From the NCBI RefSeq assembly GCF_900187975.1, contig NZ_FZPC01000009.1, forward strand, positions 62,001-126,000: a DNA stretch of 64,000 nucleotides, written 5' to 3'. Below the pieces are notes generated by a model. It searched no databases. It was not told the DNA's origin and saw nothing but the letters and a program-made list of their open reading frames with translations. Positions 29,257 through 44,341 of the stretch are shown here, piece after piece. Origin of the DNA: Pseudomonas delhiensis. GTDB lineage: Bacteria; Pseudomonadota; Gammaproteobacteria; Pseudomonadales; Pseudomonadaceae. The first letter of the stretch is position 1; each line of letters opens with the position of its first letter. The position numbers and the translations under genes are program-made.

Positions 29257-29272
29257 CTGTTCATGCATACAG
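29257..29272. promoter_or_regulatory. LexA (SOS) box 1
   Basis: CTGTTCATGCATACAG fits CTG-N10-CAG and extends to TACTG...CAGTA. It lies 84 bp upstream of the 105-residue gene at 29356 and between it and the divergent lipoprotein gene. Confidence 0.85.
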
Positions 29273-29355
29273 TATTTTTCGATTATCCTTCCGTCATCGA
29301 CGAAAGGCACCCTGGCAACAGGTGGCAGGCAAGGACCCGAACAGGAGCGAAAGCG

Positions 29356-29673
29356 ATGGTGGACATCCGCCAGATGAAATACACCGTGAACCACATGGGC
29401 GTGGAGGAAGTCAGCGAAGCGGTCGCCGAACTGCACCTCGAGGGCCTGGTCACCGAGGGCAAGACGCCCTTCTCCCGCACCCACTTCAACACCTGCTTCG
29501 CCGAGATCGAGGCACTGCTGCAGCGCGCCGGCTACCACCGCCCGCTGGACGTGGTGGGCTACCAGGGCCAGGCCTACGCCATGTTCGACCCCACGCGCTG
29601 GGATGCGGTGGAGGTGCTGCGCTGGCTGAAGGAATACGTGGAGGAGGCGCGCAGCGAGGCGGCGGGGGCCTGA
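29356..29673 (+). CDS. Uncharacterised SOS-controlled small protein
   Basis: A 105-residue soluble protein with a LexA box 84 bp upstream. The start at 29356 is set by AGGAG eight bases before it; longer in-frame starts would run into the LexA box. The chain is rich in aromatic and acidic residues (MKYTVNHMGVEEVSEAVAEL, SRTHFNTCFAEIEALLQRAGY, AYAMFDPTRWDAVEVLRWL), with no signal peptide and no recognised domain. It does not resemble YebG or SulA by eye. The P. aeruginosa LexA regulon is known to include small unnamed genes; whether this is one of them needs a search. Confidence 0.8.
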   Translation: MVDIRQMKYTVNHMGVEEVSEAVAELHLEGLVTEGKTPFSRTHFNTCFAEIEALLQRAGYHRPLDVVGYQGQAYAMFDPTRWDAVEVLRWLKEYVEEARSEAAGA

Positions 29674-36584: not shown

Positions 36585-37424
36585 TTACCAGGCCTTGCCG
36601 GTCTTGTAGAGGTTCTCGTAGCAGAAGTTGGTCGCCTCGATGTAGCCCTCGGCGCTACCGCAGTCGAAGCGCTTGCCCTTGAACTTGTAGGCCAGCACGC
36701 AGCCGTCCTGGGCCTGCTTCATCAGGGCGTCGGTGATCTGGATCTCGCCACCCTTGCCCGGCTCGGTCTGCTCGATCAGCTCGAAGATGTCCGGGGTCAG
36801 GATGTAGCGGCCGATGATCGCCAGGTTCGACGGCGCCTCTTCCGGCTTGGGTTTCTCGACCATGTTGTTCACGCGGTAGATGTCGTCGCGGATCATCTCG
36901 CCGGCGATCACGCCGTACTTGTTGGTCTCTTCCGGCGGCACTTCCTGGATGGCCACGATGGAGCAGCGGAACTGGTTGTACAGCTTGACCATCTGCTTCA
37001 GGACGCTGTCGCCTTCCAGGTTCAGGCAGAGGTCGTCGGCCAGGACCACGGCGAAGGGCTCGTCGCCGATCAGCGGGCGGCCGGTGAGGATGGCGTGGCC
37101 CAGGCCCTTCATCTCGATCTGACGGGTGTAGGAGAAGGTGCACTCATCGATCAGGCGGCGGATACCGACCAGGTACTTTTCCTTGTCGGTGTTGCGGATC
37201 TGGGTTTCCAGCTCGTAGCTGATGTCGAAATGGTCTTCCAGCGAACGCTTGCCGCGGCCGGTGACAATGCCGATCTCCGACAGCCCGGCTTCCAGCGCCT
37301 CTTCGACGCCGTACTGGATCAGCGGCTTGTTGACCACCGGCAGCATTTCCTTGGGCATGGCCTTGGTGGCCGGGAGGAAACGGGTGCCGTAGCCGGCAGC
37401 CGGGAACAGACATTTCTTGATCAT
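36585..37424 (-). CDS. galU: UTP--glucose-1-phosphate uridylyltransferase
   Basis: A 279-residue enzyme forming UDP-glucose from UTP and glucose-1-phosphate, for LPS core, exopolysaccharide and trehalose pathways. The nucleotide-binding signature FPAAGYGTRFLPATKAMPKE spans residues 7-26, and VVLADDLCLN and RFDCGSAEGYIEA are also present. Length is identical to the P. aeruginosa enzyme. The start is the ATG at 37424, with GGAGTC upstream. It is transcribed alone and divergent from imuA. Confidence 0.97.
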   Translation of the reverse strand: MIKKCLFPAAGYGTRFLPATKAMPKEMLPVVNKPLIQYGVEEALEAGLSEIGIVTGRGKRSLEDHFDISYELETQIRNTDKEKYLVGIRRLIDECTFSYTRQIEMKGLGHAILTGRPLIGDEPFAVVLADDLCLNLEGDSVLKQMVKLYNQFRCSIVAIQEVPPEETNKYGVIAGEMIRDDIYRVNNMVEKPKPEEAPSNLAIIGRYILTPDIFELIEQTEPGKGGEIQITDALMKQAQDGCVLAYKFKGKRFDCGSAEGYIEATNFCYENLYKTGKAW

Positions 37425-37725: not shown

Positions 37726-37768
37726 TTGACCGGATGGGGGCGAGACCAGATACTGTATTTCCATACAG
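37726..37768 (+). promoter_or_regulatory. imuA promoter with LexA (SOS) box 2
   Basis: TTGACC (37726-37731), a 17-base spacer and GATACT (37749-37754) form a sigma-70 promoter. The LexA box CTGTATTTCCATACAG (37753-37768) overlaps the end of the -10, the classical position for repression. It lies 55 bp before the imuA start. Confidence 0.88.
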
Positions 37769-37822
37769 TATTCAGGATTTCATCTTGCTCCACTTCCCCG
37801 CTTCCCATCACAGGTGCCAACC

Positions 37823-38440
37823 ATGGGCGTCGCCGTAGACCTGGGCGCGCTGCTCGACCAGCGACGCGTCTGGAAGGGCCAGGCCGGCACCATGCCCAGC
37901 GCGGCCCAGCCCACCGGCCACACCCGGCTGGACGCCTTGCTGCCGGGCGGTGGCTGGCCGGAGGCGGCGCTGAGCGAGATCCTCCACGCCGCCGAGGGTA
38001 TCGGCGAGCTACAGCTGCTCTGGCCGACCCTGGCGCGCCTGAGCGCGGCCGGCGAGCGCGTGGTGCTGGTGGCGCCGCCGCACATCCCCTACCCCCGCGC
38101 CTGGCTGGAGGCGGGCGTCGAGTTGCAGCACCTGGCCTGGGTCGAGGCCAGTGGCCGCGATGCGCTCTGGGCGACCGAGCAATGCCTGCGCTCGGGCTGC
38201 TGCGGCGCCGTGCTGTGCTGGCCGCAGCAGGCCGACGACCGCGCCCTGCGCCGCCTGCAGGTGGCGGCGGAAAGCGGCCAGACCCTGGCCTTCGCCTTCC
38301 GTCCGCTGCGCGAGGCGTACAACCCCTCGCCGGCCGCGCTGCGCCTGGCCGTCGAAACCCGCCCGGCGCAACTGCGGGTGCTCAAGTGCCGTGGCGGCCT
38401 GGCCCCGGCCAGCCCCCTGCCGCTGGCCGCCCTGCACTGA
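37823..38440 (+). CDS. imuA: Translesion synthesis accessory protein ImuA
   Basis: A 205-residue RecA/SulA-like protein of the DNA-damage mutasome. The opening half holds LDALLPGGGWPEAALSEIL, where RecA-like proteins bind nucleotide, and the C-terminal region VETRPAQLRVLKCRGG is typical. ImuA binds RecA and ImuB in other bacteria. The ATG at 37823 has AGGTG six bases upstream. It is the first gene of the operon imuA-imuB-dnaE2 under LexA control. In some pseudomonads lexA2 leads this operon, but here it does not. Confidence 0.92.
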   Translation: MGVAVDLGALLDQRRVWKGQAGTMPSAAQPTGHTRLDALLPGGGWPEAALSEILHAAEGIGELQLLWPTLARLSAAGERVVLVAPPHIPYPRAWLEAGVELQHLAWVEASGRDALWATEQCLRSGCCGAVLCWPQQADDRALRRLQVAAESGQTLAFAFRPLREAYNPSPAALRLAVETRPAQLRVLKCRGGLAPASPLPLAALH

Positions 38441-38447
38441 GGTCGCC

Positions 38448-39863
38448 ATGCGCTGGGCCTGCATTCTCCTGCCACAGCTGGCCATGGACGCCGCCCTGCG
38501 CCAGCGCAGCGATCCCGAGGCGCCCCTCGCCCTGCTAGCCGGCCCGCCACAACGGCGCGTGCTGCAGGCGGTCAACCCGGCGGCCCGCCGGCTCGGCCTG
38601 CGCCCCGGCCTGTCGCTGACCGCGGCGCGCGCCCTGTGCCGCGACTTCGATTGCGCCGAGTACGACCTGGCCGCCATCCAGCGCAGCCAGGACCTGCTCG
38701 CCGCCTGGGCCTACGGCTTCAGCTCCCAGGTCAGCCAGCACTACCCGCGCGCGCTGCTGCTGGAGGTCGCCTCCAGCCTGGCGCTGTTCGGCCCCTGGCC
38801 ACGCTTCGAGGCCCGCCTGCGCGAGGAACTGCGGGCCCTGGGCTTCAGCCATCGCATCGGCGTGGCGCCCACCCCCGCGGCCGCGCGGGTACTGGTCAAC
38901 GCCGGTGACGGCCTGGTGGTGGAACACCCGGAAGCCCTGCGCAGCGTCCTCGGGCGCCTGCCCCTGGAGCGCTGCGGGCTGCCCCGGGAAAGCGTGGCCA
39001 GCCTGGCGCGCATGGGCCTGCGCAGCCTGCAGCAACTGCTCGCCATGCCCCGCGACGGCCTGGCCCGGCGCTTTCCGGCGGAACTGCTGCGGCAGGTTGA
39101 CAACCTGCTCGGCCAGCGGTCGCTGGCCCTGGACTTCTACCGGCCACCGGAACGCTTCGAGAGCCGCATCGAGCTGAATTTCGACGTCGAGTCGACCCAG
39201 GCCCTGCTCTTCCCCCTGCGCCGCCTGACCGGCGACCTCGCCGCCTTCCTCGCCGGGCGCGACAGCGGCGTGCAGCGCTTCGAGCTGTACCTGGAGCACC
39301 ACGGCCACGGCGAAACCTGCATGCCGGTCGGCCTGCTCAGCGCCGAGCGCGAGCCGGCCATGCTCTTCGAACTGAGCCGCGGCCGCCTGGAACAGCTGCA
39401 ACTGCCCGCGGCGGTACAGGCCGTGCGCCTGCAGGCCGACGACCTGCCGCCCTTCGCCCCCGAGTTGCGTCAGCTGTTCGACGAGCGCCCGCAGCAGATG
39501 CAGCCCTGGGAACAGCTGCGCGAACGCCTGCGTGCACGGCTGGGCGACGATGCCGTGCACGGCCTGGGAGCCCTCGCCGAGCACCGCCCGGAGCAGGCCT
39601 GGCAACCCCGGGAAAGCCCGCGCGCCCTCCCCCTGCCGCCTTGCGGGCCGCGCCCCGGCTGGCTGCTGCGGCAGCCACAGGCGCTGCGCGAAAGCCTGCC
39701 CCGGGTGCTCGCCGGGCCGGAGCGCATCGAGTCCGGCTGGTGGGACGGCGCGGACATGCGCCGCGACTACTACCGGGTGCAGACCCGCGCCGGCCAGCAG
39801 GCCTGGGTCTACCGCGAGGTCGGCAGCGAGGGGCCGTGGCTGATCCACGGCTGGTTCGCATGA
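38448..39863 (+). CDS. imuB: ImuB, catalytically inactive Y-family polymerase homologue
   Basis: A 471-residue protein that acts as the adaptor of the mutasome. It has the Y-family fold (palm, then fingers [15 protein letters not shown], thumb and little finger) but lacks the catalytic acids: the first palm strand reads [18 protein letters not shown] with no DxD, and the second reads [12 protein letters not shown] without the Asp-Glu pair. A possible clamp-binding peptide is RQLFDE near residue 345. The start lies 7 bp after imuA and the stop overlaps the dnaE2 start (ATGA), so the three are coupled. It bridges DnaE2, the beta clamp and ImuA. Confidence 0.93.
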
Positions 39864-42800
39864 CCCCGGCCTACGCCGAGCTGCACTGCCTGTCGAACTT
39901 CAGCTTCCAGCGCGGTGCCTCCAGTGCCCATGAACTCTTCGAGCGCGCCGCACGCCTGGGCTACCGCGCCCTGGCCATCACCGACGAATGCAGCCTGGCC
40001 GGTATCGTCCGCGCCTGGCAGGCGGCGAAGGCATTCGAGCTGGCGCTGATCGTCGGCAGCGAGGTGCGCATCGAGGCCGGCCCCAAGCTGGTCCTGCTGG
40101 CCGAGAACCTCACCGGCTACCAGAACCTCTGCCGGCTCATCACCCACGCCCGGCGCCGCGCCGACAAGGGCAGCTACCGCCTGCTGCGCGAGGACCTGGA
40201 AGCCGACCTGGAAGGCCTGCTGGCGATCTGGCTGCCCGACACGGCAGCGGATACGGATGGCGCCTGGCTGCGCGAACGCTTCCCGCAGCGCCTCTGGCTG
40301 GGCGTCGGGCTGCACCGCGGCGCGGACGACAGCACCCGCCTGCAGGCCCTGCTGACCCAGGCCGCCCACCATGGCATCGCCGCCGTGGCCTGCGGCGACG
40401 TGCACATGCACAGCCGCGGCCGCCGGGCCCTGCAGGACTGCATGACGGCCATCCGTCACCACCTGCCGGTCAGCGAGGCCGGCGCCCACCTGTTCCCCAA
40501 CGGCGAACGCCACTTGCGCCAGCGGGAAGTGCTGGCCGAGCTGTATCCGGCGCAGTTGCTGGAGGAGACGCTGCGGATCGCGGGGCGCTGCAGTTTCGAT
40601 CTGGGGCAGCTGCGCTACCAGTATCCCCGCGAACTGGTGCCCGAGGGGCACACGCCGAAGTCCTGGCTATGCCAGATGACCTACGCCGGCATCCGCAGGC
40701 GCTGGCCGGACGGGGCGCGGAAAAAGGTGCTGAAACGCATCGGCAAGGAACTGCTGCTGATCGCCGAGCTGGAGTACGAGAACTACTTCCTCACCGTCCA
40801 CGACATCGTCCAGTTCGCTCGCAGCCAGGGCATTCTCTGCCAGGGGCGCGGCTCGGCCGCCAACTCCGCGGTGTGTTTCGCCCTGGGTATCACCGAGCTG
40901 GACCCGTCGCGCAGCAAGCTGCTTTTCGGCCGCTTCATCTCCCGCGAGCGCAACGAGCCGCCGGACATAGACGTCGACTTCGAGCACGATCGACGCGAAG
41001 AAGTCATCCAGTACGTCTTCCGTCGCTACGGCCGCCACCGTGCAGCCCTGACCGCCGTGGTCAGCAGCTACCGCGGCGCAGGCGCCATACGCGACATCGC
41101 CAAGGCCCTGGGCCTGCCACCCGACCAGGTGGACGCCCTGGCCGGATGCTGCGGGCGCTGGAGCGAGCAAACGCCACCCGAAGAGCAACTGCGCGAAGCG
41201 GGCTTCGACCCGCAGAGCCCGGTCATGCGCAGGGTGCTGGCGCTCACCGCGGAGCTGATCGGTTTTCCCCGACACCTGTCGCAGCATCCTGGTGGCTTCG
41301 TCATTTCCGAGCAGCCATTGATCAACCTGGTCCCGGTCGAGAACGCGTCCATGCCCGAACGCACCGTGATCCAGTGGGACAAGGACGATATCGATGCGGT
41401 GAAGCTACTCAAGGTCGACGTGCTCGCCCTGGGGATGCTCAGTGCCCTGCGCCGCTGCTTCGACCTGGTGCATCGCCTGCGCGGCACGCCGATGAGCATT
41501 GCCAGCATTCCCCCGGAAGACCCGGCCACCTACGGGATGATCAGCCGCGCCGATGCCATAGGCGTGTTCCAGATCGAGTCCCGCGCGCAGATGGCCATGC
41601 TGCCGCGGCTGCGGCCGAAGACGTTCTACGACCTGGTGATCGAGGTCGCCATCGTCCGTCCGGGCCCGATACAGGGCGACATGGTCCACCCCTACCTGCG
41701 ACGGCGTAACAAGGAAGAGCCGATCACCTATCCCTCGCCGGCCCTGGAACAGGTGTTCCGGCGCACCCTGGGCGTTCCGTTGTTCCAGGAACAGGTCATG
41801 GAGGTCGCGGTGGTCGCTGCCGGCTACACCGCCGGCGAAGCCGACGACCTGCGCCGTTCCATGGCTGCCTGGAAACGTCACGGCGGCCTGGAGAAACACC
41901 GCCTGCGCCTGACCGAGGGCATGCTGGAGAATGGCTACACCGCCGATTTCGCCGCCCGCATCTTCGAACAGATCAAGGGCTTCGGCAGCTACGGCTTCCC
42001 CGAATCCCACGCCGCCAGCTTCGCCCTGCTCACCTATGCCAGCAGTTGGCTGAAGTGCCACGAGCCGGCAGCCTTCGCCTGCGCCCTGGTCAACAGCTGG
42101 CCGATGGGCTTCTACAGCCCCGACCAGGTGCTGCAGGATGCCCGCCGCCACGGCATCGAGGTGCTGCCGGTGGACGTGCGCTACAGCCACTGGGACTGCA
42201 GCCTGGAGGATAAGGGGGAGGCACAGCCGGCGATCCGCCTGGGGCTGCGCATGGTCCGCGGCTTCCGCGAGGATTTGGCCCAACGCATCGTCCAGGCCCG
42301 CGAGCGGCGGGCTTTCGAAAGCGTCGAGGACCTCAGCTACCGGGCCGGCCTGGACGCCGCGGCCCGCGAGCGCCTGGCCGACGCCGGCGCCCTGCGCGGC
42401 CTGGCCGGGCATCGCCACCGGGCGCGCTGGGCCGTGGCCGGGGTGGAACCGCAGCTACCGCTGTTCGCCGGCCAAGACGCCATGGCGGAGGCCGCGGTGA
42501 GCCTGCCGTTGCCCAGCCTGGGCGAGGAAATGCTCACCGACTACGCCAGCCTGGGCACCACCCTCGGCCCACACCCGCTGCGCCTGCTGCGCGGCCAGTT
42601 GAAAGCGTTGCGCTGCCGCAGCTCCCGCGAGCTGCCCGGCCTGGAGCATGGCCGGCCACTCAGCGTCGCCGGGCTGGTGATCGGCCGGCAGCGGCCGCAG
42701 ACCGCCAGCGGCGTCACCTTCGTTACCCTCGAGGACGAGTTCGGCCTGGTCAATGTCGTGGTCTGGCGCGACGTTGCCGAACGCCAGCGCCGCGTCTTCC

Positions 42801-42934
42801 TGCAAGCGCAGTTGCTGCAGGTGCGCGGCCGGCTGGAAAGCGAGAGCGGCGTGCGCCACGTGATCGCCGAGCAACTGGTCGACCTGACGCCCCTGCTCAG
42901 CGGCCTGGACGTGCCCAGCCGCGATTTCCGCTAG
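39860..42934 (+). CDS. dnaE2: Error-prone DNA polymerase III alpha subunit
   Basis: A 1024-residue C-family polymerase (ImuC) that performs mutagenic bypass after DNA damage. The N-terminal PHP domain opens [17 protein letters not shown]. The catalytic aspartates lie in [12 protein letters not shown] (Asp369, Asp371, Asp373). The palm/fingers motifs [15 protein letters not shown] and [20 protein letters not shown] are complete, and a C-terminal OB fold ([19 protein letters not shown]) ends the protein. It is shorter than replicative DnaE, as expected. The downstream end converges on the UmuD-like gene with only 4 bp between stops. Confidence 0.95.
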
Positions 42935-42938
42935 TGGC

Positions 42939-43316
42939 TCAACTGGCCAGGCGGTGCAGGTTCCAGCGCACCACGCCCCAGATCGCCAGTTCGTCGCCTT
43001 CGCCGATGCGGATCGGCGGGTAGCGGTCGTTGGCCGGCAGCAGCGCGTAGGCGCCGTCGATGATGTCCAGGCGGCGGATCAGCGGCTCGCCGTTCACCGC
43101 GGCCACCACCACCTCGCCGGAACAGGCCAGGGAAGCGCGGTCCACCACCAGCAGGTCATTGTCGTGGATGCCGGCACCGGTCATACCATCGCCATGTGCG
43201 CGGACTATGTAGGTATGGGGCGTGTGCAGCTCAAGCAGGTCATCCAGCGACCGCGGCTGCGCCTGGAGGAACGCCGACGGCTCGGCGACGGCAGGATGGA
43301 AAGCGGCATGAGACAT
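42939..43316 (-). CDS. UmuD'-like protein with both catalytic residues lost
   Basis: A 125-residue S24-fold protein aligned throughout with UmuD (139 aa). In UmuD the self-cleaving dyad is Ser60 in SGDSM and Lys97 in TVKKL. Here the same places read HGDGM (Gly44; codon GGT, one base from the Ser codon AGT) and LIRRL (Arg81). The N-terminus starts about eight residues before the UmuD cut site and has no Cys-Gly or Ala-Gly there. It should therefore not self-cleave and resembles mature UmuD'. A start at 43316 places it 21 bp from LexA box 3. No umuC lies beside it; the mutasome operon converges on it. A role as a partner of ImuB or of a distant polymerase V is inferred. Confidence 0.85.
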   Translation of the reverse strand: MSHAAFHPAVAEPSAFLQAQPRSLDDLLELHTPHTYIVRAHGDGMTGAGIHDNDLLVVDRASLACSGEVVVAAVNGEPLIRRLDIIDGAYALLPANDRYPPIRIGEGDELAIWGVVRWNLHRLAS

Positions 43317-43336: not shown

Positions 43337-43379
43337 CTGTACATGCATACAGATACCAGAAATAATGCGAACCCGGCAA
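43337..43379 (-). promoter_or_regulatory. Promoter with LexA (SOS) box 3
   Basis: The LexA box CTGTACATGCATACAG occupies 43337-43352. On the minus strand TTGCCG (43374-43379), 17 bases and GTATCT (43351-43356) form the promoter, whose -10 touches the box. It drives the UmuD'-like gene. Confidence 0.85.
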
Positions 43380-43459: not shown

Positions 43460-43672
43460 ATGAATCCTGGCACGTTCGTCACACTCATGATTTTCGGCTG
43501 GCTGCTGCTGGCGGGCGTCACGCTCTGGGCCTTCCTGCGCGTACCCATGCGCAGGGCCCGGCTGCATTCGCGCAACGAGGCCCAGGCCCATCCCCACGAG
43601 GCGCCGGCACCCCAGCCGCAGGCGGCCCCGCGCAGGCGTCATGCCGGCTGGCTGGCGTGGAATCATCGCTGA
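43460..43672 (+). CDS. Small membrane protein (70 aa)
   Basis: One N-terminal transmembrane helix (about residues 6-28, TLMIFGWLLLAGVTLWAFL) precedes a basic, Pro/Ala/His-rich cytosolic tail (RVPMRRARLHSRNEAQAH, then APAPQPQAAPRRR). GAGG lies ten bases upstream of the ATG at 43460. It is divergent from the LexA box 3 gene (about 108 bp from the box), so SOS influence is possible but not indicated. Family not recognised. Confidence 0.65.
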   Translation: MNPGTFVTLMIFGWLLLAGVTLWAFLRVPMRRARLHSRNEAQAHPHEAPAPQPQAAPRRRHAGWLAWNHR

Positions 43673-44254: not shown

Positions 44255-44341
44255 TGGTGCTCGGAGCGGGACTCGAACCCGCAAGACCGTTAGGCCGGCG
44301 CATTTTAAGTGCGCTGTGTCTACCAATTTCACCATCCGAGC
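44255..44341 (-). tRNA. tRNA-Leu (anticodon UAA)
   Basis: On the minus strand the cloverleaf is complete at 87 nt with encoded CCA. The acceptor arms are GCTCGGA / TCCGAGC, the D region is GGTGAAATTGGTAGACAC, the anticodon loop is CTTAAAA with TAA, a long variable arm (class II) is present, and the T arm is GCGGG-TTCGAGT-CCCGC. Confidence 0.97.

What the first reader, a model, noticed from the sequence alone, without database searches (positions are those of the whole stretch)
42939..43316. LexA-controlled UmuD'-like protein that cannot self-cleave, beside the ImuA-ImuB-DnaE2 mutasome
Both catalytic positions are changed (Ser60 to Gly44 by a single-base AGT/GGT difference; Lys97 to Arg81), and the N-terminal arm with the cleavage site is missing, while the rest of the fold and SOS control are intact. 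It looks like a permanently mature UmuD' that skips RecA-stimulated cleavage. No umuC is present; the nearest Y-family protein is the inactive ImuB. This hints at a link between the two error-prone systems that I have not seen described.
Basis: partly seen in the sequence, partly recalled or inferred. Interest (0 to 1): 0.75.

Follow-up and report, generated by a model that had tools for sequence, protein, structure and literature searches.

The report
Genus-wide protease-dead UmuD'-like SOS protein
Pseudomonas citronellolis and most of its searched relatives carry, behind a DNA-damage (LexA-type) control sequence, a conserved shortened relative of the mutagenesis protein UmuD in which both self-cutting residues are replaced; it likely acts only by binding partners and would probably damp the damage response rather than join the neighbouring error-prone polymerase.

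Summary
The minus-strand ORF 42939-43316 (125 aa) is a UmuD'-type S24 protein with Ser60->Gly44, Lys97->Arg81, no cleavage arm, and a LexA box ending 20 nt before its ATG. It is not a local oddity or a decaying copy: a dead copy occurs in 22 of 25 searched genus genomes, each with an open frame and a LexA box. Position 97 is Arg in all 22; position 60 is Gly (19) or Glu (3). The dead proteins form one clade (100/99), and their core is under purifying selection (median dN/dS 0.136).

The mutasome link does not hold: ImuA-ImuB-DnaE2 is beside it in only 4 of 22 genomes; in 17 of 22 it sits next to galU. "Ready-made UmuD'" is doubtful: the conserved arm is lost, Ser60 and Lys97 also touch the UmuC tail in a published Pol V model, and 15 of 22 genomes lack a UmuC-tail match. 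Best reading (inferred): a stand-alone S24 core repurposed as a non-cleavable binding protein, most likely a RecA-filament decoy restraining SOS; an accessory to DinB or ImuB is the main rival. New variant of a known kind. Another dead UmuD, with arm and umuC kept, turned up in Chitinophagaceae.

The parts
42939..43316 (-). protease-dead UmuD'-like CDS, 125 aa, ATG 43316, stop codon 42939-42941
43185..43187 (-). codon GGT, Gly44, at the position of catalytic Ser60
   Evidence: sequence
43074..43076 (-). codon CGC, Arg81, at the position of catalytic Lys97
   Evidence: sequence
43337..43352 (-). LexA box CTGTATGCATGTACAG, ends 20 nt before the ATG
43460..43672 (+). divergent small ORF (70 aa, MNPGTFVTLMIF..., membrane-type by eye), found beside all 22 dead copies but with weak matches in other genera too
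   Evidence: no Pfam or NCBIfam match
39860..42934 (+). dnaE2 (imuC), convergent neighbour, not in the same operon
38448..39863 (+). imuB (Pfam IMS)
   Evidence: start codon chosen by eye
37814..38440 (+). imuA (NF033429, 227 bits)
37753..37768 (+). LexA box of imuA-imuB-dnaE2
36585..37424 (-). galU, the direct neighbour of the dead gene in 17 of 22 genomes (name by eye and synteny)
44255..44341 (-). tRNA-Leu (taa) upstream

Best explanation
The ORF encodes a 125-residue UmuD'-type S24 protein that lacks the Ser-Lys dyad and the cleavage arm, lies behind a LexA box, and is conserved in 22 of 25 genomes of its genus; it likely works as a non-cleavable binding protein, most likely a decoy for the RecA filament that would slow LexA (or UmuD) processing and so restrain the SOS response. 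Shown: dyad loss, arm loss, LexA box, one clade, purifying selection on the core, presence without umuC and without mutasome linkage. Inferred: LexA really represses it; it is stable and dimeric; it docks on RecA* as LexA and UmuD do; the outcome is damping rather than activation.
For: Two clean classes: of 210 aligned rows, 141 are Ser/Lys, 64 are Gly/Glu/Asp with Arg, 5 have a gap at the Ser column, and none is mixed (some species occur twice, as P and L rows). Arg81 is kept in 22 of 22 through three synonymous codons. Core dN/dS 0.136 against 0.61 for the arm and 0.535 for the tail: selection holds mainly the S24 core. The model of P0002 (pLDDT 87.6) matches UmuD as bound to the RecA filament (8gmt_A, TMt 0.95, rmsd 1.2) and free UmuD' (1umu, 1ay9; TMt 0.92-0.93). 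The same list holds LexA and lambda repressor solved on RecA, and 8s7g, RecA with the LexA S125A mutant, so a dead dyad is compatible with RecA binding. The polymerase-facing arm is lost. Precedent: the pUM505 plasmid UmuD has no umuC beside it and was suggested to be an anti-SOS effector in P. aeruginosa (passage in PMC6636244; the original paper was not held).
Against: No RecA contact residues were mapped; the fold match does not tell RecA-binding from non-binding forms, since free UmuD' matches about as well. The missing arm includes the cleavage loop, which may add to RecA binding. The pUM505 protein has dyad and arm, so it is an imperfect precedent. LexA control rests on sequence; no expression data were found. 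G011 and G017 live without the gene. A manager role for DinB or ImuB explains the same facts.
Confidence: 0.38

Rival explanations
1. A polymerase-manager or accessory subunit: the dead dimer binds DinB (Pol IV) or the ImuB-DnaE2 mutasome during SOS and tunes their access or fidelity, without any cleavage switch.
For: ImuB is in 25 of 25 genus genomes, and weak second hits in 22 of them look like DinB; DnaE2 was found beside imuB in 25 of 25; in the window the gene lies beside the mutasome with its own LexA box. UmuD binding to DinB in E. coli is recalled, not from a call. A 2026 survey shows diverse small PolY subunits (PMC12926913, passages).
Against: Adjacency to imu genes in only 4 of 22 carriers. 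The arm, the part through which the modelled small subunits enter the polymerase, is loosely constrained (dN/dS 0.61). Near-universal DinB and ImuB give no correlation to test.
Confidence: 0.3
2. A ready-made UmuD' for Pol V, serving resident or incoming UmuC without RecA-stimulated cleavage, or pairing with a cleavable UmuD.
For: Length and start correspond to UmuD', the fold matches UmuD', and phage P1 HumD is reported as a functional UmuD'-like protein (title in a reference list). UmuC-tail matches co-occur in 7 of 22 carriers. Arg81 keeps the positive charge and Glu93 is kept in 21 of 22, so the pocket for the UmuC tail need not be lost.
Against: 15 of 22 carriers have no UmuC-tail match. 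Arm motif AGFPSP..D..E lost; Ser60 and Lys97, which touch the UmuC tail in the published model, are replaced. Armless UmuD' is reported dimeric but defective in mutagenesis (PMC11791011, passage). Canonical umuD coexists with the dead copy in several genomes.
Confidence: 0.17
3. A decaying relic of an old umuD.
For: Arm and tail are loosely constrained; G011 and G017, and possibly G007, lack it.
Against: 22 of 22 frames open, box kept 22 of 22, core dN/dS 0.136, Arg81 invariant through three codons.
Confidence: 0.02

Closest known systems
UmuD/UmuD' (E. coli Pol V subunit; NCBIfam NF007621)
   Same: S24 fold, UmuD'-like length, LexA box just before the start codon, closest relatives by sequence and structure
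   Different: no Ser-Lys dyad, no cleavage arm, no umuC found; scores 93 bits against a cut-off of 110
HumD of phage P1 (NF051876)
   Same: SOS-regulated and described in a title as UmuD'-like; made without the arm (recalled)
   Different: 35 bits against a cut-off of 120; chromosomal and genus-wide here. Whether HumD keeps its dyad was not tested
Orphan plasmid UmuD of pUM505
   Same: UmuD without umuC beside it in a Pseudomonas; suggested anti-SOS effect
   Different: keeps dyad and arm; on a conjugative plasmid
Dead UmuD of Chitinophagaceae (found here)
   Same: Ser60->Ala or Thr with Lys97->Arg
   Different: keeps an arm (GFGAAADDYMERGIDLNEQL or close in six, GFTAAADNYMERGIDLNEQL in L069) and lies upstream of a umuC-like ORF in 6 of 7 loci; in the seventh the contig ends 778 nt on. 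Own clade, 100/99
ImuA-ImuB-DnaE2 mutasome
   Same: neighbour in the window, also LexA-boxed
   Different: convergent and separate transcription unit; adjacent in only 4 of 22 carriers

Membership tests
UmuD (autoproteolytic Pol V subunit) | S24 fold | tested here: met
   Pfam PF00717 73.8 bits; model matches UmuD'/UmuD
UmuD (autoproteolytic Pol V subunit) | Ser-Lys catalytic dyad | tested here: not met
   Gly or Glu, and Arg, in 22 of 22 genus copies
UmuD (autoproteolytic Pol V subunit) | N-terminal arm with cleavage site (A/C-GFPSP) | tested here: not met
UmuD (autoproteolytic Pol V subunit) | curated NCBIfam cut-off | tested here: not met
   93 against 110 bits
UmuD (autoproteolytic Pol V subunit) | umuC partner in operon or genome | tested here: not met
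   own genome: only DinB and ImuB; 15 of 22 carriers without UmuC-tail match
UmuD (autoproteolytic Pol V subunit) | LexA box before the gene | tested here: met
   22 of 22 (window); binding by LexA not testable
HumD | curated NCBIfam cut-off | tested here: not met
   35 against 120 bits
LexA | N-terminal DNA-binding domain plus cut-off of TIGR00498 | tested here: not met
   125 aa, S24 domain only; 41.6 against 110.95 bits
ImuABC mutasome component | conserved linkage with imu genes | tested here: not met
   4 of 22 carriers
RecA*-binding S24 protein (works like) | binding to the RecA filament | not testable with these tools
   only a fold match to RecA-bound UmuD and LexA

The most novel reading that the evidence does not exclude
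A bacterial genus has turned UmuD into a pseudoprotease brake: an SOS-induced, uncuttable S24 core that occupies RecA filaments, prolongs LexA and holds down error-prone repair, so that the SOS response carries a built-in antagonist made from its own mutator subunit; dyad loss is also found in Chitinophagaceae, there beside umuC.
Probability: 0.3. Interest if true: 0.78.

Novelty: new variant of a known kind. Interest (0 to 1): 0.56.

Why it matters
UmuD is the textbook case of a protein switched on by RecA-stimulated self-cleavage. A genus-wide, selected relative that has lost the switch and the conserved arm but kept the SOS box indicates that the S24 core has a function of its own, and gives a natural tool to separate RecA docking from cleavage and from polymerase activation. 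Database names such as 'DNA polymerase V', 'LexA family protein' and 'S24 family peptidase' hide this.

Tried and rejected
Link to the mutasome by synteny: rejected (4 of 22 carriers). Decay: rejected by dN/dS and open frames. Sequencing error: rejected, since 42 database protein clusters (some from the same species as my loci) show the same class. The divergent small membrane-type ORF as an obligate partner: it is beside 22 of 22 dead copies, but 41 of 119 family genomes have a match, 29 of them in other genera with weak E-values of 2.7e-7 to 7.2e-4, so it is probably an older neighbour. Absence in G007, G011, G017: G007 has no galU match either, so an assembly gap is likely; G011 and G017 have galU but no dead gene or strict box beside it. 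Naming a RecA interface from papers led nowhere. No match over 60% identity among 31 phage records or the 5000 best-scoring plasmid records, where the plasmid search hit its limit. Literature: ten searches, five aimed at this; nothing in the listings and passages that I saw describes a dead UmuD in Pseudomonas; only openly licensed PMC papers were searched. Papers seen as passages: PMC6636244, PMC3901139, PMC8944484, PMC1250226, PMC12926913, PMC11541004, PMC9603915, PMC11791011; PMC12706794 was opened for terms with no occurrence; others only as listings.

Limits: start codons of the genus loci are the first in-frame ATG after the box by my script, so the spacing is partly built in. dN/dS is Nei-Gojobori, part of the pairs left out as saturated or too close (178 of 231 used; 60 to 72 pairs). 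The ImuB-DnaE2 tree is not a species tree, was rooted on G017 by choice, and has weak forks. The UmuD tree rests on 82 columns and 83 of the 210 rows aligned, 88 canonical rows over 100 residues were used. (63 rows) gives a shorter stem (0.31 against 0.58) and does not reject one common clade for the Pseudomonas and Chitinophagaceae dead proteins (p-AU 0.349). In one search one row (L063) has a gap at the Lys column and is unassigned. One search scored at most 11 candidates a genome and did not list every match. One search listed 120 of 143 hits and scored only 7998 candidates.

Full report
WHAT IS THERE. The ORF at 42939-43316 runs on the minus strand, ATG at 43316, 125 aa. It is an S24 protein (PF00717 73.8 bits) whose nearest solved relatives are E. 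coli UmuD' and UmuD. Against UmuD, catalytic Ser60 is Gly44 (GGT) and catalytic Lys97 is Arg81 (CGC). The cleavage arm is missing. A LexA box at 43337-43352 ends 20 nt before the ATG. In the other 21 genus copies the box ends 14-22 nt before the first in-frame ATG that follows it; in canonical umuD genes of the genus it is 16-17 nt in four of five loci (the fifth, L146, reads 8 because its first ATG lies three codons earlier).

The box pattern with one mismatch allowed is not enriched in the window (13 seen, 20.1 expected). The strict form is informative: CTGTATNNNNRTACAG has seven places in the 6.73 Mb genome and none for the reversed control. I put R in the pattern because the window's box has G there; 20 of the 22 genus boxes have the full ATACAG half, the window and G001 have GTACAG. 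On one side of each of the seven places lies a PA0069-family radical SAM gene, tag, one of two DUF1654 genes, a FAN1-like nuclease gene, imuA or this gene.

NEIGHBOURHOOD. imuA-imuB-dnaE2 (37814-42934, plus strand) has its own box at 37753. The dead gene is convergent with dnaE2, 4 nt apart, so it is a separate unit. The genome search finds DinB and ImuB but no UmuC; the other S24 proteins are a LexA-like one (C41, also the weak second hit) and two more.

A GENUS-WIDE FAMILY. A profile of the dead proteins finds a dead copy in 22 of 25 genomes of the genus (E at most 1.5e-46). In 398 family genomes such scores stay in this genus; the next best match is E=2.5e-36, and the seven loci outside the genus that were read (L147-L153) are all Ser/Lys. 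Dyad tally over 210 aligned rows: Ser/Lys 141, Gly/Arg 56, Glu/Arg 6, Asp/Arg 2, gap at the Ser column 5, no mixed state. Of these 64 dead rows 42 are database proteins and 22 are genus copies including the window. A tree without the arm and the two dyad columns puts 30 dead rows in one clade (100/99), nearest to canonical Pseudomonas UmuD, after a long stem (0.58 changes per column, 0.31 with other rows). So: most simply one origin, a burst of change, then constraint.

SELECTION. Median dN/dS is 0.136 in the S24 core, 0.61 in the arm and 0.535 in the tail (whole gene 0.27 over 178 of 231 pairs). Arg81 is written CGC, CGG or CGT in 22 of 22; codon 44 is GGN in 19 and GAR in 3. Selection keeps the core, with Arg, far more than the arm.

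LOCATION. In 17 of 22 genomes galU follows the dead gene; in the window, G001, G002 and G010 the imu operon lies between the two; G004 has neither. The four form one group of the ImuB-DnaE2 tree (support 0.80), with G004 as sister (0.995). A divergent small ORF lies beside all 22 copies but has weak matches in other genera.

WHAT WAS LOST, READ AGAINST POL V. A published Pol V model (PMC11791011, passages) places the UmuD' arm in the UmuC active-site cleft and lets the UmuC C-terminus contact UmuD' residues 36, 71, 73 and 69. Counting UmuD' from Gly25 these are UmuD Ser60, Thr95, Lys97 and Glu93 (my conversion). In the dead family Ser60 and Lys97 are replaced and Glu93 is kept in 21 of 22. Thr95 is Leu or Met in the 22, but Thr95 is not among the positions at least 85% conserved in the 88 canonical rows, so I do not count it. 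Arg81 keeps a positive charge. The arm motif is gone. The same paper reports armless UmuD' as dimeric but defective in mutagenesis. So the cleavage switch and the conserved arm are lost, and the tail pocket is altered. That weakens 'permanently mature UmuD''.

MECHANISM. What remains is a core that folds like RecA-bound UmuD (8gmt, TMt 0.95), like free UmuD' (TMt 0.92-0.93), and like LexA and lambda repressor, which are also solved on RecA. A LexA S125A mutant has been solved on P. aeruginosa RecA (8s7g, title). I infer that an uncuttable S24 core made during SOS would sit on RecA filaments and delay LexA processing. The pUM505 UmuD, which has no umuC beside it, was suggested to be an anti-SOS effector in P. 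aeruginosa, though it has dyad and arm. The rival, an accessory to DinB or ImuB-DnaE2, is nearly as likely. Neither was tested directly.

A SECOND CASE. Among 87 relatives (80 loci and 7), 74 are Ser/Lys, 5 are the Pseudomonas Gly/Arg type, 7 are Ala or Thr with Arg and 1 could not be read. The seven are UmuD-like proteins of Chitinophagaceae (one record is named only Bacteroidetes) with an arm kept; a umuC-like ORF lies downstream in 6 of 7, and in the seventh (L069) the contig ends 778 nt on. Only L044's was checked: UmuC is its best family, 375 bits, below the cut-off of 431. In a 63-row tree the seven form their own clade (100/99) and the Pseudomonas dead proteins group with canonical Pseudomonas UmuD (98/91), which favours two origins, but holding both together is not rejected (p-AU 0.349). 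There the dyad is lost but arm and umuC stay, the opposite combination, which fits the idea that arm and UmuC go together.

NOVELTY. NCBIfam cut-offs for UmuD (93 against 110) and HumD (35 against 120) are not met. Five literature searches showed no description in the listings and passages I saw; the library holds only openly licensed papers. I file it as a new variant of a known kind.

Noticed in passing
L044, L049, L050, L053, L054, L069, L071 (Chitinophagaceae/Bacteroidetes loci): UmuD-like proteins with Ser60->Ala or Thr and Lys97->Arg that keep an N-terminal arm and lie upstream of a umuC-like ORF in 6 of 7 loci: a non-cleavable UmuD design, likely of separate origin.
   Followed up: partly
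window 43460-43672 +: Small (about 50-80 aa) membrane-type ORF divergent from the dead gene, N-terminus MNPGTFVTLMIFGWLLLA highly conserved in the genus, no Pfam or NCBIfam match.
   Followed up: partly
window 29257-29272: A further perfect CTGT-N8-ACAG box (CTGTTCATGCATACAG) overlaps the start of a 136-aa ORF (29263-29673 +) with no Pfam match.
   Followed up: no
L144 (G017:C204): In a genus member without the dead gene, imuA-imuB-dnaE2 follows a second LexA-like gene that keeps the Ser-Lys dyad (by eye).
   Followed up: no
L187 (pUM505, NC_016138.1 44386-44817): Canonical umuD with no umuC beside it, between an SOS-response-associated peptidase gene and an integrase gene.
   Followed up: partly
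L141, L142, L143, L146: Canonical umuD genes of the genus lie divergent from a gene whose product begins MCGR, as SRAP (SOS-response-associated peptidase) proteins do; name given by eye.
   Followed up: no
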